Positions 51,092 to 64,000 of a stretch of 64,000 bases of DNA are shown piece after piece (the first letter of the stretch is position 1; every line of letters begins with the position of its first letter). Source of the DNA: Crotophaga sulcirostris (lineage: Eukaryota; Chordata; Aves; Cuculiformes; Crotophagidae); the NCBI GenBank assembly GCA_013397455.1, contig VYZB01000724.1, forward strand, positions 57,315-121,314. The letters are read 5' to 3'. The position numbers were made by a program, and so were the translations under genes. The notes beneath the pieces are model-generated. The model searched no databases, was not told the DNA's origin, and was given only the letters and a program-made list of their open reading frames with translations.

Positions 51092-51142
51092 CAAACCTCT
51101 TGTAGCCGAAGGACTGCACCTCCTCCTCTTCTGCAAAATCGT
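51092..51142 (-). CDS. COLEC12: COLEC12 (collectin-12 / CL-P1) coding exon 2, N-terminal cytoplasmic tail
   Basis: Seen: on the minus strand a pyrimidine-rich acceptor (TTTCTTTCTTTCCCTAG) is followed by 51 bp that read (D)DFAEEEEVQSFGYKRF(G), then the donor GTAAGTGG. The exon starts and ends in phase 1: two bases complete a codon, sixteen codons follow, and one base is left over. Known, from memory: vertebrate COLEC12 begins MKDDFAEEEEVQSFGYKRFG, so this exon supplies about residues 3-20, ahead of the transmembrane segment. COLEC12 is a type II membrane scavenger receptor with coiled-coil, collagen-like and C-type lectin domains that binds microbial glycans and modified lipoprotein. YKRF fits a tyrosine-based (YxxPhi) endocytosis signal. 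Inferred: the start codon (ATGAARG followed by GT) is not between here and 64000, so exon 1 lies beyond the right edge. No other exon of the gene was found. Confidence 0.92.
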
Positions 51143-54100
51143 CTAGGGAAAGAAAGAAAGACACAGCAACAGATTACTACTACTACCACTGGAAAAAAGA
51201 TGGGAAGAAGTTTTTACAGCTGCACATTCATAAATTAATGTACTTGAAAGTTTAACCAATTTGTAAGGCATGCCACTGATCTTTCCCTTCATTGCTCATA
51301 ACCCACTTCTGTCCCTGGGTAGAAAAGGCAGTTCAGAGCCTTTCCTCCAAACCAGTATCACCAGCAGAAATCCAGACTACAAATGCTTTATCACTTGGCA
51401 GCTAACCTGATGCCTGCTTGGCCACCTAAGTATAGACCAGAGCAGATGTGTCATGTTCCTCATCACGATGACAGCCACAATTGCCACCAATGTACCAATG
51501 GGGTCGGCTCACCCAGACCACTCACTCCAGACTTCTACCTGTGTCATCCAGGCGGTTCGGCTCAGATTATACATGCACCAGCTGGGTCATTTGTACAAAG
51601 TGCTACATGTACCTAATCCAAGTAATAAGAGAGGAGTCATAGTGGATGGTTGTCCATTTGTCCCCTCACCACCTCCCACAGGCACTAGCTTGGCCTGAAG
51701 AGGCAAGATCCAAGAAAAAATGGGAAACAGAACCAACAAACTCAAACAGATGGAAAAAATAAAAAAAAACATTTAAGCCATTTTGTTCTCAAGTTCACCA
51801 GCTAGCGAGCAGTAAAATGCTAATAATCACAATTTTATTTTGTCAGAAGCTTAATTTCTCTCCACTTCCTTTCAGCAGCAAAGGAAAAGTCAGGCATCAG
51901 CAGAAGAAATACACCCACGACTTTTTAAAGAAAAGTCATATGTTTGTGTTCATATGTTCAGTCTCCTTTTACCAACACAACCCCTCCTTCTGCTGAGTCA
52001 GAAAGGAAAGAGCCCTGCCTTATCACCAGCACCAGTCTCTGCACCAGGCAACCAACTGCCAGGAAGTGCAGCACAGCCCAGGCTGCTCATTTCCCATTTG
52101 TTTGTTTCTGAGGGGGGCAGAGTAGACCCGTTCCCCCTCCCATAAGCACCATTTAACATGGGAAGAAGCCTCCATGGGTCTTTCTTTGAAGAGGACCTAG
52201 GATATGGCTTTCCAAGTGGTGGCTGGCGGTTCACAGCCCACTGCTGCACTGGGGGACCACATGGCCTTTGCCACATTTCCAAGCAGAATAATGCAGGCAA
52301 GTCTGCCTCCACACTTCAAAAAAACACGGCCAGGGACTGATAGCAATCCTCATTCTTCAAAACGCAGGCATTCCTGGACTTCTGTGTGCATCACAGTGGT
52401 GGGGAGGCAGACTCGGCGCCCTGGTGAGCCACCTCTCCAGCATGAGATGCTGAGCAACCTCTCCATGCAGACCTTTCCCCAACATGAGGGGAGAAGGAAA
52501 CAGAAGCTCAAAGTCCAGTCAAGGAATCCATAAGAAGGGAATATTTAATGAGTGGCAGTACAAAAGCAGGCCTAAAGTAGATAAACAGATGTGACAGAGT
52601 GAGAGGTCTGTGCTTGGTTAGACTACTGCTGTCCACAGACTTACTGCACGTGAGGAGGCTGCTCTGCATCGTGAGACTGGGCTGACTGGTGCCGCAGCTA
52701 ATTCAGGCCACAACAGAGCCTTAGGGGGATGAATTCAAAACTGAAGTAAAGATATGGTCCACATACAAGCTCAACAAAGTCCAAACCGTTTTGAGTGTAC
52801 ATCCAACAACAAATGTGGCCTGCACCTCTTTGTGACCTGCAAGGTGCCACTGAAGTCTGAGGGAAACGTTGCCTGCAGCAGCAGTGGAGTCCCTAAATTG
52901 CATAACTTTGCAGAACACCACCCTTTACTCAGAGAACACTTTTGACAAAACAGCTAAAACCTCACATTCTTGATGAGGTAACACATATTTTGCTCCCTGC
53001 CACAGGTGCTCCTGTCCATATCCCAATTCAGCTAGACCCCAGCTCAGAGGTGTATTTAAGAAATGGAAGAACCAGTGGACACTCCTTACGCAAAACAAAC
53101 ACATCCTGGTTTTGAAAGCAGAAAGAATCCTTTAAAAAACAAACTCAACAAACCCTCGCAATTGTACCAAATGTTATCTAAAGACAAGGTCATTCCACAA
53201 AACATGACAAATACTAATAAAGCACAAACAGTTGACAACCAAGCTTCTCATCCCAGCAGTGAACTACTCAGGAAAAATCTTCCCCTCTTGCACAATAGAT
53301 AAACGCTACACGAAAGAAAGTGTATCAGCTCCAGAAACCCCAGCTTCCTGCCCTCTCCTGCTATCAGGATTGTAACACAATCGCCTCCTTTGTTTCTCAG
53401 AAGTGTAACCTGACTTACCCGATCCATATCTGATGTACACAGCCAGGCTGTCTTTCAAATCCTGCGGCTTCATTCTACACCACATCTCCAAGTCCTTCCT
53501 CCTCGGCTGCTAGCATCTTCCTTAGTTGTTTGGTTTTTCATGCTTAGCCCAATGGCATTGCTATCTGGCCATGCATTTATAATCATATTTTTGTTTCTCT
53601 GGACCTTTTTATATTTGCAACATGTATATGTAAGTTTTATATACATATATCATATACATTTATATACACATTTTTATATTTTTAATTTTTTCCAGTATTT
53701 GCAATACTGCATGCTGTGCTTGCTAGTGATGATTATTTTTTTTAAGCTTTGATTACTTTATAATTATTCATCAATCTCCTAATTTTGAAGAGCATTAGAA
53801 AAAAAGAAGTGGAGGTGGGCAAGGACAGTTTTGTCAACAGGTGACCTGGCTCCCTACTTACTAAAATCTTAAACATCAGATGAAACTTTTTGTAATCCCT
53901 GTAAATTGTTGATCTAGCAACAGGCAGCAACATATTTTAGGGGAAGTCTATTAAAATTATTTAATGGACTAAGGTCTTTCAGTCACAACTGCCAGTAGGC
54001 ACTTTGATCAAATCATGTGAAAAGATAATGTTTTACAATATTAGCTGTAATATAACAAGCTCAATGAAAATAAAGATAGGAGGAATAAATGAATAAAAGT

Positions 54101-57100
54101 TAGACTAAATGCTCAGAAATGAACAGCACTGCATCTTTTTGAAAAAGAGACTGGGATGGTTTGAAAATCCTACTTCATAAGAAATTTGTGTTTGTAATAT
54201 TAAAAATAAAGTTGACAAACAAGCCTATAAATTCAGGTCCCAAGGCAAAGCCATGTGCCCCAGCTTGCTCCCCCCATGCCTTTTGGTCAGCATTGCGTTC
54301 ACTGGAGGTGCCAGAAACTTGGCTCTCACATCCCTGTTCCAGTGCTGAAAATATTAAGCTTTGTTGCAAGTTTTGAAAAAATCTTAAAGCTTCGTAATGT
54401 CTTTGAATCAGGGAAATGCAAGAGAACCAAAGTTTTCATTGAAAAGGAAACAGTTTTTTTAGAGAAAACTATGAAAATGTGATCTGTGATGAATTACAGA
54501 GGTTAAGAAAATATACACCAAGTAGGAAAGCAAATAGTAAGAAAACTTGCAGCATGTTTTTGTGCCTTATGCTTTTAAAGGCAATATCAGAAATGAGAGT
54601 GGAAGAAATTCATGTGTTTTGAGCACCAGTGGCTGTGACTGCAAAGGCCAATTTTGCGTTTTTACATCAGTGGTGCCCACACACTTGAGTGGGGCTGCAC
54701 CTGGTGTAAAAAGGTTTTATTTGACATCGTGAAAACCATAAGTTTAAAATATTTTACTTTAGTTTAAATCCAAACCTTCTCAGTTACAAAGAGAACTGGA
54801 ATGAATGCAATATTTCCGTTACATACATATACATTTTTATATAAGCAAGGCTTATTTTCCTGGGAGAAAAATATGAATGGCATACTTCTCCTTGAAGCAG
54901 ACAATAAAGCAGAGTCTGTTGTTATGTGCCAGCCAGAAGAATTAACTCTTTAGTGCCAGAAAGACCAGCCATAATGTAGTTATAAACTGATCTACTGAGC
55001 TCTCACCTGTGAGTTGAAGAAGAGGAAATCTATTATAGAGTAAGAAAGCCAAAGAAACATGAAAAGCTGGGTAAAATGTGATTTCTTATTCCACTGACTC
55101 CTATTGAGCTCTGGCAGAAAGAAGGTCCATAAAAAAAGTGAACTTTGGGCAGAAAAGAAACACATGTGAGCAACCAATTGTATTTAACCATGTAGGGGAA
55201 GGACCACAGAAGACCTCCTGTTCATCAGAGTTACAAGAGTCTCCTTGGAGGCTGCAACACATTGTCACTCCGAGCATACAGCAAACTGCTAAAAATAAGT
55301 GGCTCGCTGTAGGTGAGCAGCAGCACATCAAATATTTTAGGGAGTCAATACAAAGCAAAAGCTCTGGTCCAAATAAAAAAAATAGGCTTTGAGATATTTT
55401 GGAAATATCCACACCTCACCATGTACCAATGCCAAATTCTGCTTGCCTTCCAGCTACAAATTATTACTGCAACACCTCTAATAAATACAGTTGTAGAGTT
55501 AAATAAGTTACAGTACAATGCTTCAAGGGAGTGGAAACTATAAAAAGGCAGTTCAGCTGGGGATTAACACAGCGAACAGAGGGAATTAATTTAATCTAAA
55601 ACAAATTAGACTCTCATTTGATTAATTTGCTAGAGGCAAAGCAAAAATCTGTGGAGGAGAACTGTGTAATTTCTAGTTCTTGTTCTTAAACCTTAAATAA
55701 ATTAATCATGGACCACTTACAAGTCACTTTGAGGTCAAAAAAGAAAGAGCTGGCCTGGAGCCAAAAAGGATGCCAAATCTGCCCCGGGATTATATAGGGC
55801 CTATAACCACTGCATCACTTGGACCCTTTGCTGTAACAGCATCAGATCTGAGAAGCCTTTGGTGCGAGGTGATTTTAGGGAAATTGTTTCCATTTTCTCC
55901 CCTTCCTTTTGTAGGTGCCATTGTTGGCATACAGAAGGTGTCACAGAAAGCTGCTAATGGACATGTCTAGCTCTCACCTTTTAGTAGTATAATCCGTTCA
56001 GGCATTTTAATGTAATTAACTAGTGAAGCAAACTAGACCTCAGAACTGTAGAGATTCTGGGTTGTATGGTGACTGCAGACAAGTGGTATCCAATAATTTC
56101 TAGAACTTTCATGAGTAGTAAACATGGGTTTAAATTCTTTGTTTTAAGACTTTGTTTAAAGTCTTGAATTAAGAAAAGACCAATATGCTACTCTGCACTT
56201 CAAAATCCAGGGAAATCTACTTCAGGAGAGAATGAGGCATCTGGGCTGAATATTGTCACAGAGTTTCAACTCAGATTTTAGAAGCTACTTTATAACCCCT
56301 GCGAAAACTGGATTTACTGTACATGAGAATTTACCCCTAAAGCACCACACTGGGAACTCAGGAATATAAAACTAATTTGTACTAACCATGACATCCAGGG
56401 TAAGAGGTTCCTTTAAAATAAATCTCTCAAAGAGCTTTAATAGTTAGGGCTCTGCCTTTATGGGAACTGTATAGTTACATCTCAGTGCAACACTGTAAAA
56501 TTCATTCTATTATCAAGAACAGATTTTTTTTAGTACCATTTGGAAAGATGCTGTGCCTATTAGTTGAAAATTATTATATTTCTCTCTCTAACCTGTAAAC
56601 CAGCATGGAAGTCAAACTTTGCTCAGAACCATGTAACAAGTGCATCCAGGATCTCACCAGAGGGATCACCTGCAGTGTCAGAAAGCTACTTCTGCCCGCT
56701 GTCTCCACCTCAGCCCTCTCAGGGTAAGGCAAAAGTTGTCCACTTGTGAGGTTTCTGTATATTAACAACTATTCAGACAGATGAGAACAGTGAACACCAA
56801 TATATTTCTCATATCACATTTCAAAAGCCTTTCAAGCAGCCACCAGATTTATATGCATTTCTGGTCACCATTAACTAGATCTATATTCAAAGTGCTGACC
56901 TAGAGGTGAAACTGAGCCAGTAGAAGCACAGCAAGCAGCTGCAGCCTTCAGATGTTGATGACTTCATCAGTCTCTAATTGGTTTCCACTGGTTTTCATAG
57001 CTTTCATTTTGGACAGTCTCCTGCTTGTGCTAACGGGCCGCTCACTCCCCTCTCTCTTCACAGATGCTTCTTCTCACTTGTTCTCTTTTTATGCCTTTCT

Positions 57101-60100
57101 CCATTAGTTTCTAGGCCCTTTTCATATTCAAGTCTTTCTCTCTTTGCTTCTATTCTGGTAAGACCTCCCTCATAAAAACCTCCCCCACACATAAACCCCA
57201 CCCCCTACTGACAAGGTCCCAAGCTGACATGTCATGTTCACCATGTCACTGTTGTTGGATCTGCATGTATCATGCCCATCTTTTCCATCTGGTCCTTTGT
57301 CCAACTTGTCATTCTGTGAGCTCCTCAGGACAGCTATTACATGGATTCCACATTTGTAGAGTACCTGGTCTTCAGGGGAGGCCTGGCAGAGGTTCAGCTG
57401 AGGCAGTTCTGGAAGTGAGCCCACCTCCCTGCATCTCAAATCATCCTTTGGCTTGTTGTCTGAGCCTGGATTCTGGCAACGAGACTGAGGCTTTTCCCCA
57501 CCTCTGTCCTTCAGGCTGCTGATCGGGGAATTCATCTGCTTTCAGTATTGCAAGAAAACAAGAGGCAAGGTCCCAGGCCATAGATTCTCTCTTGACACTT
57601 ACAATCTAAGACTAGGATTGTGTCAAAAAACCAAACCAAAACAAAGAGTCATGACAAATGGGTACATTTTAATGTTCTGGCCTCAATCTACCCTCGCACT
57701 GCTATACCCCAAAAATGTGAGAGCTCACACTAAGAACGCAGGAAAAGACAGGAGATTAAGAAATCTAGAGGTATAAGACACTCTCTAGTTTTGCTTTCCA
57801 GGCACAAAATGAAGACAGCAAATAGGAGTGTTTCTTGAACAAAACTCATTAGCCCGTAAGTGCCACAGAGCATTGCTACAGTACTGGGGTCAGGACCAGC
57901 TGCACGGTGCAGAGGGTTGACCTTAGAAGTTAAAAGTTTAAATCATATCGTATTTCAGCATAATGATTTAAGAGCAAACAGACCTGTTCTCATTAGTGCA
58001 TTGAAAAATCGTGCCTCCCTGTCTGTATGTTAGAGGAGGCAATTAACAACAGCATTAAAATGGCACACACATTCCTAACAACACACGTCTCCATTACCTC
58101 CCATAACTCATCCACTTTGTTCCCCAGCGACGTCCCAGTCTTCACCTCAAATTTATGCACCAAAAGGGATTGCACTTCTAGGTGGAAGCAGTCAGACTCT
58201 GAAGACAATTCATCTTAGGCTGATCCCTCACTCATACAGACCATGTTCACATTATTAGCAGGATCAGGTTCACTTTCAGTGCCTGGTAAAAAGTGTCTTT
58301 ATTTTGCTTTCTAAGGGGGAGGGCTGGAAGGGGGGGAATCTCTGTTCTGACACACAGGACTTCAGGATAAGGAACGTTTTGTGAAGCTGAAGATAACTGA
58401 GCACACATCCTTCACAGCACTGAATTGCTTTCAGCCTTGACATTTCTTTCTGCTCTCTTTATTTTACTCTGGTTTTGCTCTGCAAAGCCTGATCAGCTCT
58501 ATCTTTCTGCAAGATTATCTTTCCCTTCTTATCTTAGTAGGCAAAGGTGTTTGGACCTCTGGGCACAATGGTCTTTGAGTGTGGATCTAAGTAAACTGTT
58601 CAGTGGTTGTGACAAAAAAGGGCTCTGTTCAGCTCTCAGCTGTAGCAAAATGAGTCTAGAATAAATTTATGTTATCCAAAGTAGAAGAACAGAGTCATGA
58701 GAGATTTTAAACAACTTGTTTCTTCATAGGAATAGGCTCACTGGACCTATTCTTAGTCCTGTGTGCTGGGAAAAGTAGAATATTGAAAGCGAAGATGAAC
58801 AATTACAACTTCTTACTGAAAACACTCCTGCAATTTATAGTTTATATGCCAATTTTGCTCCATATCCACTACAGCTGTACAGTAATATTTCTACCTGTGC
58901 AATAATAGATTTCTTTTGTATTTTCACAGCCTCCTACACTCTGCTTTTCTCTCCTTTGACACACACATACATGATCAACTTTCTCATCCATATGTTTAAA
59001 ATTCTCTGTGCTACCAACCAATTCAGGATACACATTGACTGTATGGTGGCATTGCTGGGGATTTGTTCTGCGTTATATCACACATTTATTATAACTGCTC
59101 ATGCCTTTGAACTTCTGCGGTAGGGTCCTGTGACATGTCCAACACACACCACTCAGAGCTCCTGCACATGTTTCATGTTTATGTCACTATATTCACATAA
59201 GCTCTGTTATAACTGGACTAAGTAAAGGTTACTAGATCACTCCATTTCTAATCCTTGGTTTTCAGATGCTTTCTGGCTTCTGCAAAATGCTCTGGAGTGG
59301 ATTTTTTTTAAATTTGTAGTTTGAAGTTTCTATCCAAGAAAGACCTATTTGCAGATAACTATTAATTTCACTTTGTGCACATGAAGACTGGAGAGAGAGC
59401 TACATGCTTATCCTGTATTAGAAAATTAGAAGATTTATGCCTTTAGGCTTTAAAAACAGTGGTGACATCAAAACAGTTAGAGAGAAAGATGTAATCCGTC
59501 AAGAAGGCAGGCATCATATAAATAGATTATTTAAGACTTTTCAACACAGCCAATACAGAGCAACTGAATTTGCATGCATGCTCAGCTTTTGCACACAAAG
59601 GCTTTACCTGCATGTTCCAGCCAGGCTCCAAGTTACAACACAGAAGGGACGATTTTGGCAATATGGGCTGATAAGTCGTTAATTGTCTGTTAAGGTGTGC
59701 ACTGTATAAGGGAAACCTGAGGTAAAGTGAACTGGCATATTCTGTGAAAGCTCAATGTACTCTATGTGCTGAAAACTGTGCACAAAGCACATAGAGCTGC
59801 CTTTGAGGTAAACTGGTGAACACTAAGAATGCTGGACGTTCAGACTAGACCATTCGTGAGGAAGTGTCAGCCTCACTGATTTCAGTAGAGCACAGCTGAG
59901 GATGAATCTGTCCTGGCATTTCACTCCATGCATCTTTTTTTTTTTTTTTTTAAACAGGACAAGGTATTTGGTCACATTGGAGTTCTCAAGCACAAGACAA
60001 CAGACATTTCATCCTCCAGCACCATTGCTACACAAGCAGTGCACTGCAAGGTGCCTGCAACAGCTGGAAGGAAGGAGAAGGAGGAGGATCAGTGGAAAGC

Positions 60101-61934
60101 AGCAGCTGAGCTACCTTGGGTACCATGACACAGAACTCAGTCCCAAAGTGACCACCTTGCCTTCGTCATAGCCTGATTTGGGGCATTAGTGTTAGTTATC
60201 CAAACAACATCCACATTTCAGACAAACAAAACTTAGCACCAGAACTGCCCGTGACAGTAGTGATTACAGATACAGTTTAAAGTAATAATTACAAAATATA
60301 TCACAAACACATAGAAAGTTCTCAGTTTTAACAATGCTTGTCCCTATCTTAAATTAGGGCCAATGTTTTTGAACATGTGGTGGTGTTTGACTATGAGGAA
60401 GCTGTTTTCATTTGTTTCCTAGGCAACAAATACTCCTTCATACCCCAATAAATAACTACGACTTAGAAGTATCATTTGATAAAGATACATCTGACCCTAA
60501 AGCAGTCAAGTCCCTTTATAAATCACATGAATTATTACTAAGAAGTATCACCAAAGTTTGTGAACTCAGTGTAGTTCGCTGGAAATAAAACTGCCAGTAT
60601 ATTAAACATAAACTTCAATTTGTTTTACTGATTTAAAACATAAGACATTACAAATACCAGCAACGGAATATATAATTTATTCCTTACAGATATTTAGTGA
60701 TGTAATTATTTAGATATTCCTCCATTCTCCAGAGAGGGTAGATACAGAGACAGCTGCAATCAACAGATCATTTTGTTGTTATTAAGAAAAATGTGTAACT
60801 ATATCGAGTTCTAAAGTTCTACAATTATCACCACCATCAAGTTTAAAGATAAAATATTAAAAAAACAAGTCTGTACCCAGAAAAGGAAATCACAGAGTCA
60901 AAATTTGGTTTGGCTCTCTGACTTCCACAACACTGGCAACAGCATTTGTTGTGATGATTTCTCTGAAGTTTCTTTTTTCTCTTGCTATTAGCATAGCCAT
61001 TTCAGTGTTCTTTGCATGTTTTACTACTGATTTCTGAAATAAGATGGCTGTGATTTCTCTTAGGGAAACTGAATGGTAAGGAATAGCAACCAGAGCGAAG
61101 CATCTCCCTCTTGGTGGAGCGTGGGGCACCAACATGTGCTTCCAGCAGGAATAACATTTTCCCTCCAAATACCACTTCTCTGCTTTGCAAAGAATGGAGG
61201 CAGAACGGGAGGAGACGAAAGTTTCATCTTATGTCCTCAGTCCTTTGCATCCCACCTCCCCCCAAAACCGATGCAGCCTCAGCCCCTACAAAAATAGAGC
61301 GTAAGGCTTTCAGTGATAAAGGCATGGGTTTATATTACTGCATTCCCATTGTTTTGGGTTGTTCCTGCCATTACACTTACGCTGATAATGACAAGCTGAT
61401 GACAAAACTTTTGGCACAAGTACCCTATAAATAAAAATCATTGTAAATAAATTACTTTGAATACGTTGCACGGCTCTGTAGAGACACCACGTCACAGTGC
61501 CATGAGGAACTTAAACAGCGTGTGTGGGCTAGCAAAAATAACCCCCCCTCAGAAAGCTTCTCCTCCCTTCAGGCAGCTACTCTGGCAAGTGAGTAAATAA
61601 TCACATCATTTGGTGTCCCAGACTCTGGAAACTAAGTGTAACTATCATGATGTTTACTGGCGTCCTGGCATCTGGAATCAAACTCTGCAACCCAAGCACA
61701 GGCACACTGGTGCCCAAAAGCAATTTTCTTGGATGTATGGTTTTTTCCTTCCACCCTTCAAGTTTATTTTTGCTGCTGCAGAAAAACTAGATCCAACTCT
61801 CACAAGCTCCCAACTACTTCCTAAACTTTCCGTAACGTCCTTTGATGTTTTCATTTTAAGTACTCCCCAGCGTGTAAAGCCTCTGCGTTTTGCTGTAAGG
61901 CTATCAATTTTCATAAACACAAGGCTTTCTTGCA
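51143..61934. other. COLEC12: Non-coding interior of COLEC12 intron 1
   Basis: No exon, RNA gene or clear transposon recognised in 10.8 kb. Contents seen: the polypyrimidine acceptor tract of the exon (minus strand, about 51143-51160), a TATACA-type AT-rich simple repeat at about 53626-53692, and a T17 run at 59935-59951. The segment around 57290-57370 faintly resembles an old interspersed repeat, but not well enough to call. Confidence 0.5.
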
Positions 61935-61950
61935 CCCCCCCCCCCCCCCC
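61935..61950 (+). repeat. C16 homopolymer
   Basis: Sixteen consecutive C at 61935-61950, preceded by GCA and followed by AATACATG. Such a run is length-unstable and can form G-quadruplex (minus) or i-motif (plus) structures. Its exact length in an assembly is unreliable. Confidence 0.9.
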
Positions 61951-62096
61951 AATACATGTTTACTAGGTTACAACACAGCAATTTGGCAATCTGCTTCTTT
62001 ATTTGATCTGAAAAGTGTATTATCTAATACCACTCGATCACAATGTTGCAGGATGGGGTGAACCGGTAGAAGTGTGGTGTTCTACCCATTTGAAAC

Positions 62097-62144
62097 AAAA
62101 AAAAAGATAAAGAGAAAAAGAAGGGAAAAGGAAAAGAAACGAAG
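62097..62144 (+). repeat. Purine-rich tract
   Basis: Nearly all A and G; bases 62109-62139 are pure purine. On the COLEC12 sense strand it is a long pyrimidine tract. Confidence 0.6.
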
Positions 62145-62514
62145 TTTCAGTTTTAACAGATGCAAAGCAAAGACCAAATATTTTCCAGTCGGTGGATGTT
62201 GAGGAGAAATATGCCAAATACATTTCACAAGCCAGTTAAGCCTCTACTGGCACCTAATCACTGCCAGATGTTTAGAAGCAACACCAAGAACATCGCAAAA
62301 CGCTGGCAGAAAAATAAACAAATAAATCGGGGAGAAACAGAAGTCGTCTTCTCGGGACGCCGGCGGAGGGAAAAGTTGGGTGCCGGGAGAAAACGTGCTG
62401 GGGAGAGCACACACGGCCGGGACAGGACAGGACAGGACGGGGTGACAATGACACCCCTCTCCCCAGACCGGGACTGACCCGCACAAAGCAAACGGGCCGC
62501 CCCTGCCCTGCGGG

Positions 62515-63477
62515 GGTTCTGCCCGCACCCGGCTCGCCCTGCCCGCACCCTGCCTGCCCGGTGCCCTCCCAGCACCCTGCCCGCACCCTACACGCCTACT
62601 GCCCTGCCTGCCTCCTCCCCGAAACCTCCCCTCGCTGCAGCCTGTTCACACCGCGCCCTGCCTGCATCCCGCCCGCTCCCTGCCCGACATCTCCCCTGGA
62701 TGTAGCCTGTCCGCGTGCTGACTTACCTGCACCCTGCCCGCACCCTACAGATGCCCTGCGCCCTGCCCGCTATTGGCTCCCTCCCTGCCCCCTGCCCGCA
62801 CACTCTTCCCACATCCCGCCAGGAATCTCCCCTTGACGCAGCCTGCCCGCAAGCTGCCTTACTTGCACCTTGCCCGCACCCAGCCCGCACCCCACAGATG
62901 CCCCTTGTGCCCTGCCCAGTCTGCTCCCTCCCTGCACCCTGCCTGCAACCTCCCTTTGCTGTAACCTGTTCGCATTCTGATTTACCTGCACCTTACCTGC
63001 ACCCTGCCCGCACCCTGCCCGCTGTCTTCTCCCTGCCTGTACCCTGCCCACACCTTACAGATCCCTCCTGCGCCCTGCCCGCTATCTGCTCCCTGCAAGC
63101 ACCCTGCACACCCCGCTACCTGCTCCCTGCCTGCACCCTCTTCCCACATCCTGCCCGAAATCTCCCCTTGACGCCGCCTGTCCGCACGCTGCACCCCACC
63201 TGCCCCCTGCCCGGCCTGCCCCCTGCCCGCATCCTGCCCGAAACCTCCCTTTCAAGCAGCCTGTCCGCACGCTGCCTCACCTGCTCCCTCCCTGCACGCT
63301 CCCCTTGCTGTAGCCTGTTCGCTTGCTGACTTCACCTGCACCCTACCTGCACCCTGCCCGGCCTGCTCCCTGCCCTCACCCTGCTTGAAATCTCCCCTCG
63401 ATGCAGCCTGTCCGCATGTTGCCTTACCTGCACGCTCCCTTTGCTGTAGCCTGTTCGCGTGCTGCCTTACCTGCTCC
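62515..63477 (-). repeat. Degenerate GC-rich tandem array (older part)
   Basis: Seen: imperfect repetition of CCTGCCCGCACCCT-like 14-15-mers and of a longer module, CCCCTTGACGCAGCCTGT followed by CCGCACGCTGCCTTACCTGC. The longer module is recognisable near 62628, 62691, 62826, 62950, 63163, 63245, 63300, 63391, 63432 and once more at about 63828. Spacing is irregular (about 40 to 210 bp), so this is an eroded array with internal deletions or nested expansions. CACCCTACAGATGCCC-like pieces recur near 62743 and 62890. It probably shares ancestry with the 47-bp array next to it. Confidence 0.85.
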
Positions 63478-63804
63478 CTGCCCGCATCCTTTACACCCCA
63501 CCTGCGCCCTGCCTTACCTGCTCCCTGCCCGCATCCTTTACACCCCACCTGCGCCCTCCCTTACCTGCACCCTGCCCGCATCCTTTACAACCCACCTGCG
63601 CCCTGCCCTGCCTGCACCCTGCCCGCACCCTTTACACCCCACCTGCACCCTGCCTTACCTGCTCCCTGCCCGCACCCTTTACACCCCACCTGCGCCCTGC
63701 CTTACCTGCACCCTGCCCGCATCCTTTAGACCCCACCTGCACCCTGCCTTACCTGCTCCCTGCCCGCATCCTATAGACCCCACCTGCGCTGCCTTACCTG
63801 CTCC
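63478..63804 (-). repeat. 47-bp minisatellite, seven units
   Basis: Seen: the anchor CCCGCA occurs at 63481, 63528, 63575, 63622, 63669, 63716, 63763 and 63808. That is six intervals of exactly 47 bp and one of 45 bp. Each unit reads CTGCCCGCATCCTTTACA, then CCCCACCTGCGCCCTG, then CCTTACCTGCTCC, with few substitutions (CATCC/CACCC, TACA/TAGA, GCTCC/GCACC). This homogeneity marks it as the youngest part of the array and probably polymorphic. The unit has no stop codon in any plus-strand frame, which creates long spurious ORFs. Confidence 0.95.
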
Positions 63805-63880
63805 CTGCCCGCACGCTGCCCGCAGTCCCCCCTCGGTGCAGCCTCTCCGCACGCTGCCTTACCTGCGCCCTCCCGCACCG
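63805..63880. repeat. Edge units of the array
   Basis: One further copy of the longer module (CCCCCCTCGGTGCAGCCTCT, then CCGCACGCTGCCTTACCTGC) lies at about 63828-63867 and ends the array on the promoter side. It contains the CAGGTAAGG-like site nearest to the presumed promoter (63859-63865). Confidence 0.7.
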
Positions 63881-64000
63881 CACCGACCCCGCCCGCGCTG
63901 CCCCCGCACCCCGCCCGCACGCTGCCGGCCGCTCCCCTCGCGCCCCCTCATCCCCGCCCGGTGCCCGCAGCGCACGTGTTGCGGGCGGCGGAGCGGGCTC
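63881..64000 (-). promoter_or_regulatory. COLEC12: Promoter-like edge: three GC boxes and a CACGTG E-box
   Basis: Seen: CCCCGCCC (Sp/KLF GC box as GGGCGGGG on the minus strand) at about 63887-63894, 63909-63916 and 63952-63959, and CACGTG at 63973-63978, in dense CpG sequence. No TATA box is obvious. This suits a CpG-island promoter or 5'UTR of COLEC12, but the transcription start and exon 1 cannot be placed within the window. Confidence 0.45.

What the first reader, a model, noticed from the sequence alone, without database searches (positions are those of the whole stretch)
62723..63865. Twelve tandem copies of a 5' splice-site-like sequence (CAGGTAA) at the start of COLEC12 intron 1
On the sense (minus) strand the array contains CAGGTAA at 12 places. 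As plus-strand TTACCTG these start at 62723, 62982, 62993, 63424, 63467, 63514, 63561, 63655, 63702, 63749, 63794 and 63859. Most are CAGGTAAGG, matching the U1 snRNA-binding consensus CAG|GTAAGT except at the last position. A field of near-ideal donor sites just downstream of a promoter could compete with the true exon 1 donor, create heterogeneous non-coding 5' exons, or recruit U1 and suppress early polyadenylation. The array may even have amplified from a real exon-intron junction. The repeat is seen; the effects are inference.
Basis: partly seen in the sequence, partly recalled or inferred. Interest (0 to 1): 0.75.

Follow-up and report, generated by a model that had tools for sequence, protein, structure and literature searches.

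The report
Splice-site-like minisatellite beside COLEC12 promoter
A guanine-rich tandem repeat, probably early in the first intron of a bird immune gene (COLEC12), repeats a near-perfect splice-donor word a dozen times, most likely as a by-product of the repeat, and using any of these sites would probably spoil the protein rather than make a new one.

Summary
TTACCTG occurs at all 12 stated positions: on the sense strand 10 read CAGGTAAGG, one CAGGTAAGT and one CAGGTAAAT. Seven lie in a 47-bp minisatellite (63462-63813, 7.5 copies, 92%), five in its irregular flanks. COLEC12 exon 2 begins at 51142 (-). "Start of intron 1" is inference: the window ends at a 1,091-N gap and no exon 1 signature was found. 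The sites are the strongest donor-like words in the part of intron 1 seen here.

My reading: an ordinary GC-rich CAGG-core minisatellite at a CpG-island edge, the donor word a by-product. Its columns are not unusually conserved. Donor-word arrays occur at 22 other loci of this genome; the three non-donor letters together give 171 matches against 57. No array donor gives an open, in-frame join to exon 2, so use would be mostly non-productive. U1 binding or polyadenylation suppression is possible but untested; no RNA data were available. Human IFI6 and ABCA7 are published precedents, so this is a new member of a known kind.

The parts
62519..63871 (-). G-rich minisatellite region on the COLEC12 sense strand (684 G of 1,353; 88 CAGG words). 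A G-quadruplex motif scan over 62301-64000 gives 10 on the sense strand (two of them right of 63871) and none on the other
63462..63813 (-). Regular core: 47-bp unit, 7.5 copies, 92% matches, seven of the 12 donor-like words
   Evidence: TRF; unit alignment
63392..63474 (-). 43-bp unit, 1.9 copies, carrying the words at 63424 and 63467
62519..63391 (-). Irregular part of the repeat with three words (62723, 62982, 62993)
62723..62729 (-). The word that continues as CAGGTAAGT: perfect donor consensus, U1 duplex -12.1 kcal/mol
63859..63865 (-). Most 5' donor-like word in the window (continues as CAGGTAAGG)
51092..51142 (-). COLEC12 exon 2, 51 nt, acceptor CCCTAG, donor TTG|GTAAGT; needs one nucleotide carried over from exon 1
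   Evidence: tblastn of a recalled human COLEC12 matches 18 of 18 residues at 51143-51090, the two end residues being codons split by the introns; boundaries
62286..64000 (.). CpG-island-like windows (GC >=0.55, CpG o/e >=0.6), interrupted, ending at the assembly gap; the only ones in the 19 kb fetched around the window end, so probably the edge of the COLEC12 promoter
   Evidence: the promoter is inference

Best explanation
It is a GC-rich, CAGG-core minisatellite that grew by slippage or unequal exchange at the edge of a CpG island, most likely the COLEC12 promoter, inside intron 1 on the sense strand. The unit happens to contain GCAG|GTAAGG. The words can bind U1 snRNP, but most act as passive pseudo-donors. 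When one is used instead of the exon 1 donor, it lengthens exon 1 and yields an out-of-frame or stop-bearing mRNA. Shown: array anatomy, strand, word strength, frame outcome. Inferred: transcription of the array, position of exon 1, U1 binding, rarity of use, way of growth.
For: CAGG is the array's basic word (88 copies), followed by G 43, T 25, C 17, A 3 times, so CAGGTAA is one outcome among several. In six full 47-bp units the nine donor columns carry 2 changes, and 28 of 47 nine-column windows carry that few or fewer. Donor-type arrays recur in this genome: CAGGTRAG x3 at 40-70-bp spacing gives 57 matches at 23 loci, ours included, while the three non-donor letters together give 171 matches. 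CpG-island windows lie near 14 of 23 donor arrays and 6 of 8 non-donor arrays, against 0 of 17 usable (20 fetched) same-contig places, so that setting belongs to GC-rich minisatellites in general. No donor gives an open in-frame join. The array has no acceptor-like site.
Against: Donor-word arrays exceed the reversed-pattern control more than single words do (57 vs 8 matches; 91,039 vs 34,933 words). Per background word, donor arrays come to about 1.7 times the non-donor ones (my ratio; 12 and 62 words in 130,614 bp, and matches overlap). The strongest words of the visible intron 1 all lie in the array. No RNA data exclude use. The frame argument assumes a correctly assembled repeat and the usual exon 1 phase, and cannot see the gap.
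Confidence: 0.7

Rival explanations
1. Working alternative donors: the array supplies extended first exons, as the IFI6 and ABCA7 repeats do, with repeat length tuning how much COLEC12 mRNA is spoiled.
For: Word strength. ABCA7: the 25-bp VNTR starts at the exon 18 donor, and use of a donor one unit on gives an out-of-frame transcript (passages of PMC5954066). IFI6: two downstream repeat units serve as donors (passage of PMC4526556). G runs follow each word within 60 nt (1-7 per site).
Against: In ABCA7 the true donor is the start of the array; here the nearest word is 138 nt inside the window and the true donor is unseen. No open in-frame product. No RNA data.
Confidence: 0.17
2. U1 platform: the words bind U1 without splicing and guard the first part of intron 1 against early polyadenylation, or help exon 1 definition.
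For: U1 pairing energies. Sense AATAAA at 62003 and 61768 lie about 0.7-2.1 kb downstream of the words, and the reach of U1 is given as about 1 kb (passages of PMC3826338). U1 binding downstream of a natural donor aids it in PAH (abstract of PMC5933811).
Against: Pseudo-donors are said to litter introns anyway (PMC3826338 passage). Word columns are not specially conserved. The sense strand of the rest of intron 1 has 8 AATAAA against 18 antisense, so signals are already fewer without help from the array.
Confidence: 0.1
3. The array amplified from the real COLEC12 exon 1-intron 1 junction.
For: A donor-bearing VNTR can include the true donor (ABCA7).
Against: No ATGAARG|GT in the array or the rest of the visible intron 1. 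The unit's most frequent words are GGCAGGG-type.
Confidence: 0.03

Closest known systems
Human IFI6 (6-16, G1P3) minisatellite (Turri, Cuin and Porter 1995, NAR; not held; title seen in reference lists, and one citing passage)
   Same: A minisatellite whose units provide splice donor sites (title). From memory only, its 12-nt unit also reads close to CAGGTAAGG.
   Different: There two downstream repeat units are used as donors, giving several mRNAs (PMC4526556 passage). Here the unit is 47 bp, the place is presumed intron 1, and use is unknown.
Human ABCA7 intron 18 VNTR (PMC5954066, passages)
   Same: Intronic VNTR with a donor GT in the unit; use of a downstream unit donor is out of frame.
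   Different: Begins at the true exon donor, 25-bp unit, C-rich region; length variation and isoforms were measured there.
Intronic pseudo-5' splice sites in U1 suppression of polyadenylation (PMC3826338, passages)
   Same: U1-complementary words in an intron upstream of polyadenylation signals.
   Different: Those are described as scattered through introns; here they are clustered in a repeat. No effect tested.
CAGG-core, G-rich minisatellites of the Jeffreys type (recalled; one search listed nothing that I opened)
   Same: GGGCAGG-type core and G-rich strand bias.
   Different: Hypervariability not tested.

Membership tests
Minisatellite (VNTR) | Tandem head-to-tail units of about 10-100 bp | tested here: met
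   47 bp x 7.5, 92%
Minisatellite (VNTR) | Copy number varies between individuals | not testable with these tools
   One assembly only
Donor-bearing intronic minisatellite (IFI6/ABCA7 kind) | Repeat unit carries a good 5' splice-site word on the sense strand | tested here: met
   12 of 12 on the sense strand; recalled matrix gives 7.61 for 10 of them, 8.84 for one; the twelfth (62982) fell below the 5.5 cut-off for printing
Donor-bearing intronic minisatellite (IFI6/ABCA7 kind) | Array abuts or contains the true exon donor | tested here: inconclusive
   Exon 1 not found; 1,091-N gap at the window end
Donor-bearing intronic minisatellite (IFI6/ABCA7 kind) | Unit donors are used in mRNA | not testable with these tools
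   No RNA data
Alternative coding first exon | Open reading frame in phase with exon 2 | tested here: not met
   0 of 12 donors from the window edge; 0 of 60 ATG-donor pairs
Internal cassette exon | Acceptor upstream of the donor within the array | tested here: not met
   0 sites with at least 14 pyrimidines of 19 before YAG in 62519-63871
Amplified exon 1-intron 1 junction | Unit contains the exon 1 end ATGAARG|GT | tested here: not met
   No match in the window's intron 1 or in the 16.7 kb to its right outside N; the exon 1 end is deduced from a recalled protein

The most novel reading that the evidence does not exclude
The array is a length-tunable splicing rheostat: each copy adds a strong U1 site that draws some transcripts to non-productive joins, or holds U1 on nascent intron 1, so that repeat number sets COLEC12 output between birds.
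Probability: 0.1. Interest if true: 0.6.

Novelty: new member of a known kind. Interest (0 to 1): 0.3.

Why it matters
If the words are used, a recurrent and perhaps unstable class of repeat near bird promoters would be a ready source of variable 5' exons and dose change in an innate immune scavenger receptor, and copy number could be tested against splicing directly. If not, it is a useful caution: donor-consensus arrays arise at 23 loci of one genome, by one pattern, with no clear sign here of selection.

Tried and rejected
Rejected: chance single words (shuffles); a donor-specific link to CpG islands (14 of 23 donor arrays, but 6 of 8 non-donor arrays); special conservation of donor columns (six full units only, the 45-bp unit and the flanks left out); coding first exons; internal cassette exons; amplification of the exon 1 junction. 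The reversed-pattern control alone would suggest an excess of donor arrays (57 vs 8), but the single word is itself 2.6 times commoner than its reverse and the non-donor letters give 171. In the tighter search CAGGTAAG x3 at N20-50 there is no excess: 8 matches at three loci, control 8. The genome-wide count of the non-donor single word did not complete, so the small sample stands in. MaxEntScan was not available; a recalled matrix and U1 end were used. Five other genome regions similar to the array by DNA (L004-L008, match plus 1.5 kb each side) hold no CAGGTAAG.

Paper searches. None of the titles listed is about this array, but one search listed 8 of 1,050 papers, 10 of 21 and 10 of 60; one search found 0. 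One search (minisatellite with CAGGTAAGG) gave two papers; in the chicken MUC2 one the match is an ordinary exon 11 junction (passage), the other (PMC4797125) was not opened. In PMC11506328 the passages on splice donors concern transposable elements.

Full report
Observation. The 12 TTACCTG words are at the stated places. On the sense strand 10 read CAGGTAAGG, one CAGGTAAGT (62723) and one CAGGTAAAT (62982). Tandem Repeats Finder gives a 47-bp unit, 7.5 copies, 92% matches at 63462-63813 and a 43-bp pair at 63392-63474. Seven words lie in the 47-bp array; one unit (at 63626) has CAGGCAGGG instead. The other five lie in the flanking, less regular repeat. Dinucleotide shuffles of 62519-63871 reach at most 2 of the 12 words, but the words are copies of one unit, so this shows amplification, not selection.

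Setting. COLEC12 exon 2 starts at 51142 on the minus strand, with acceptor CCCTAG, one nucleotide needed from exon 1, and donor TTG|GTAAGT. tblastn with a recalled human COLEC12 matches 18 of 18 residues, the two end ones being split codons. The own genome is held: 1.058 Gb, 1,548 contigs, window = C1231:57315-121314. I take it for a bird from its size and CR1-like debris in the translations (recalled judgement; of four typed CR1 words one was found, three times, and three were absent). The window ends exactly at 1,091 N. Within the 19 kb fetched, CpG-island-like windows occur only from window 62286 to the gap, so exon 1 and the promoter are probably in the gap. That is inference.

Strength. 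With a recalled donor matrix, 11 sites in the 1,353-bp array score >=7, none in the other 11,375 bp of intron 1 seen here, and 4 in 51,080 bp downstream of exon 2; the exon 2 donor TTGGTAAGT scores 5.22. U1 duplex energies are -11.5 kcal/mol for CAGGTAAGG, -12.1 for the site at 62723, -10.2 for the exon 2 donor and -14.0 for an ideal site.

Is the word special? CAGG occurs 88 times in the array and is followed by G 43, T 25, C 17, A 3 times; CAGGTAA is about the 15th commonest 7-mer. Across six full units the nine donor columns hold 2 changes; 28 of 47 nine-column windows hold 2 or fewer. Genome-wide, CAGGTAAG x3 (N20-50) gives 8 matches at three loci, the reversed control 8. CAGGTRAG x3 (N32-62) gives 57 matches, all listed, on 23 contigs that I count as 23 loci, control 8. 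CAGGVRAG x3 gives 171 matches, of which only the first part is listed; that list is inflated by a dispersed CR1-like family. Single words: CAGGTRAG 91,039 against 34,933 reversed; in 130,614 bp of background, T 12, A 28, C 10, G 24. On these numbers there is at most a mild excess of donor arrays, about 1.7 times per word.

CpG islands. At least 4 island windows lie within about 1 kb of 14 of 23 donor arrays, 6 of 8 non-donor arrays and 0 of 17 usable (20 fetched, 60 kb to the left on the same contigs) control places. The 8 non-donor arrays were picked by hand in list order, skipping a contig-end row and rows that looked CR1-like or not tandem; one of them is cut short by its contig end. The link is therefore with GC-rich minisatellites in general. 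An assembly gap lies near 13 of 23 donor arrays, 2 of 8 non-donor arrays and 4 of 20 control places.

Consequences of use. From the window edge only three donor-frame combinations stay open: 63862 in two frames and 63797 in one. All three are out of phase with exon 2 (stops made by the join itself were not tested). Of 60 array ATG-donor pairs, 0 are open and in phase. The array has no acceptor-like site, the rest of intron 1 has 35. So an exon 1 extension would be non-productive and internal exons are not expected. The sequence in the gap is unseen.

Precedents. [quoted passage not shown] use of two downstream units, passage of PMC4526556; the 1995 paper is not held). Human ABCA7: 25-bp VNTR starting at the exon 18 donor, with a donor one unit downstream used out of frame (passages of PMC5954066). 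U1 reach about 1 kb and pseudo-donors in introns (passages of PMC3826338). U1 bound downstream helping a natural donor (abstract of PMC5933811).

Verdict. Real, ordinary in origin, functionally open. The most likely reading is a by-product minisatellite with mostly silent pseudo-donors (0.7). Use as alternative donors 0.17, a U1 platform 0.1, an amplified exon 1 junction 0.03.

Noticed in passing
L050 (G000:C1091:388473-391734): 63-bp tandem unit, 5.0 copies, 98%, whose donor-strand reading has an acceptor-like tract (CCCCACCTCCACAG) and a donor (CTCAG|GTGAGG) in each unit, as if a small exon with its intron were repeated.
   Followed up: no
L046 (G000:C819:774767-778034): 43-bp unit, 7.0 copies, 95%, with CATCCACACAG directly joined to GTGAG in the unit: acceptor-like and donor words back to back.
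   Followed up: no
L014 (G000:C824:3933393-3936484): 21-bp unit CAGGTAAGGGGGGGGACACGG, 13.7 copies, 98%, beside CpG-rich sequence; a more uniform donor-word array than the COLEC12 one.
   Followed up: partly
window 51144-62518: AATAAA is 8 on the COLEC12 sense strand and 18 on the antisense strand of intron 1 outside the array.
   Followed up: no
window 64000 / G000:C1231:121315-122405: The probable promoter and exon 1 of COLEC12 are missing in an assembly gap right behind the G-rich array; 13 of 23 donor arrays have such a gap near, against 2 of 8 non-donor arrays and 4 of 20 control places.
   Followed up: partly
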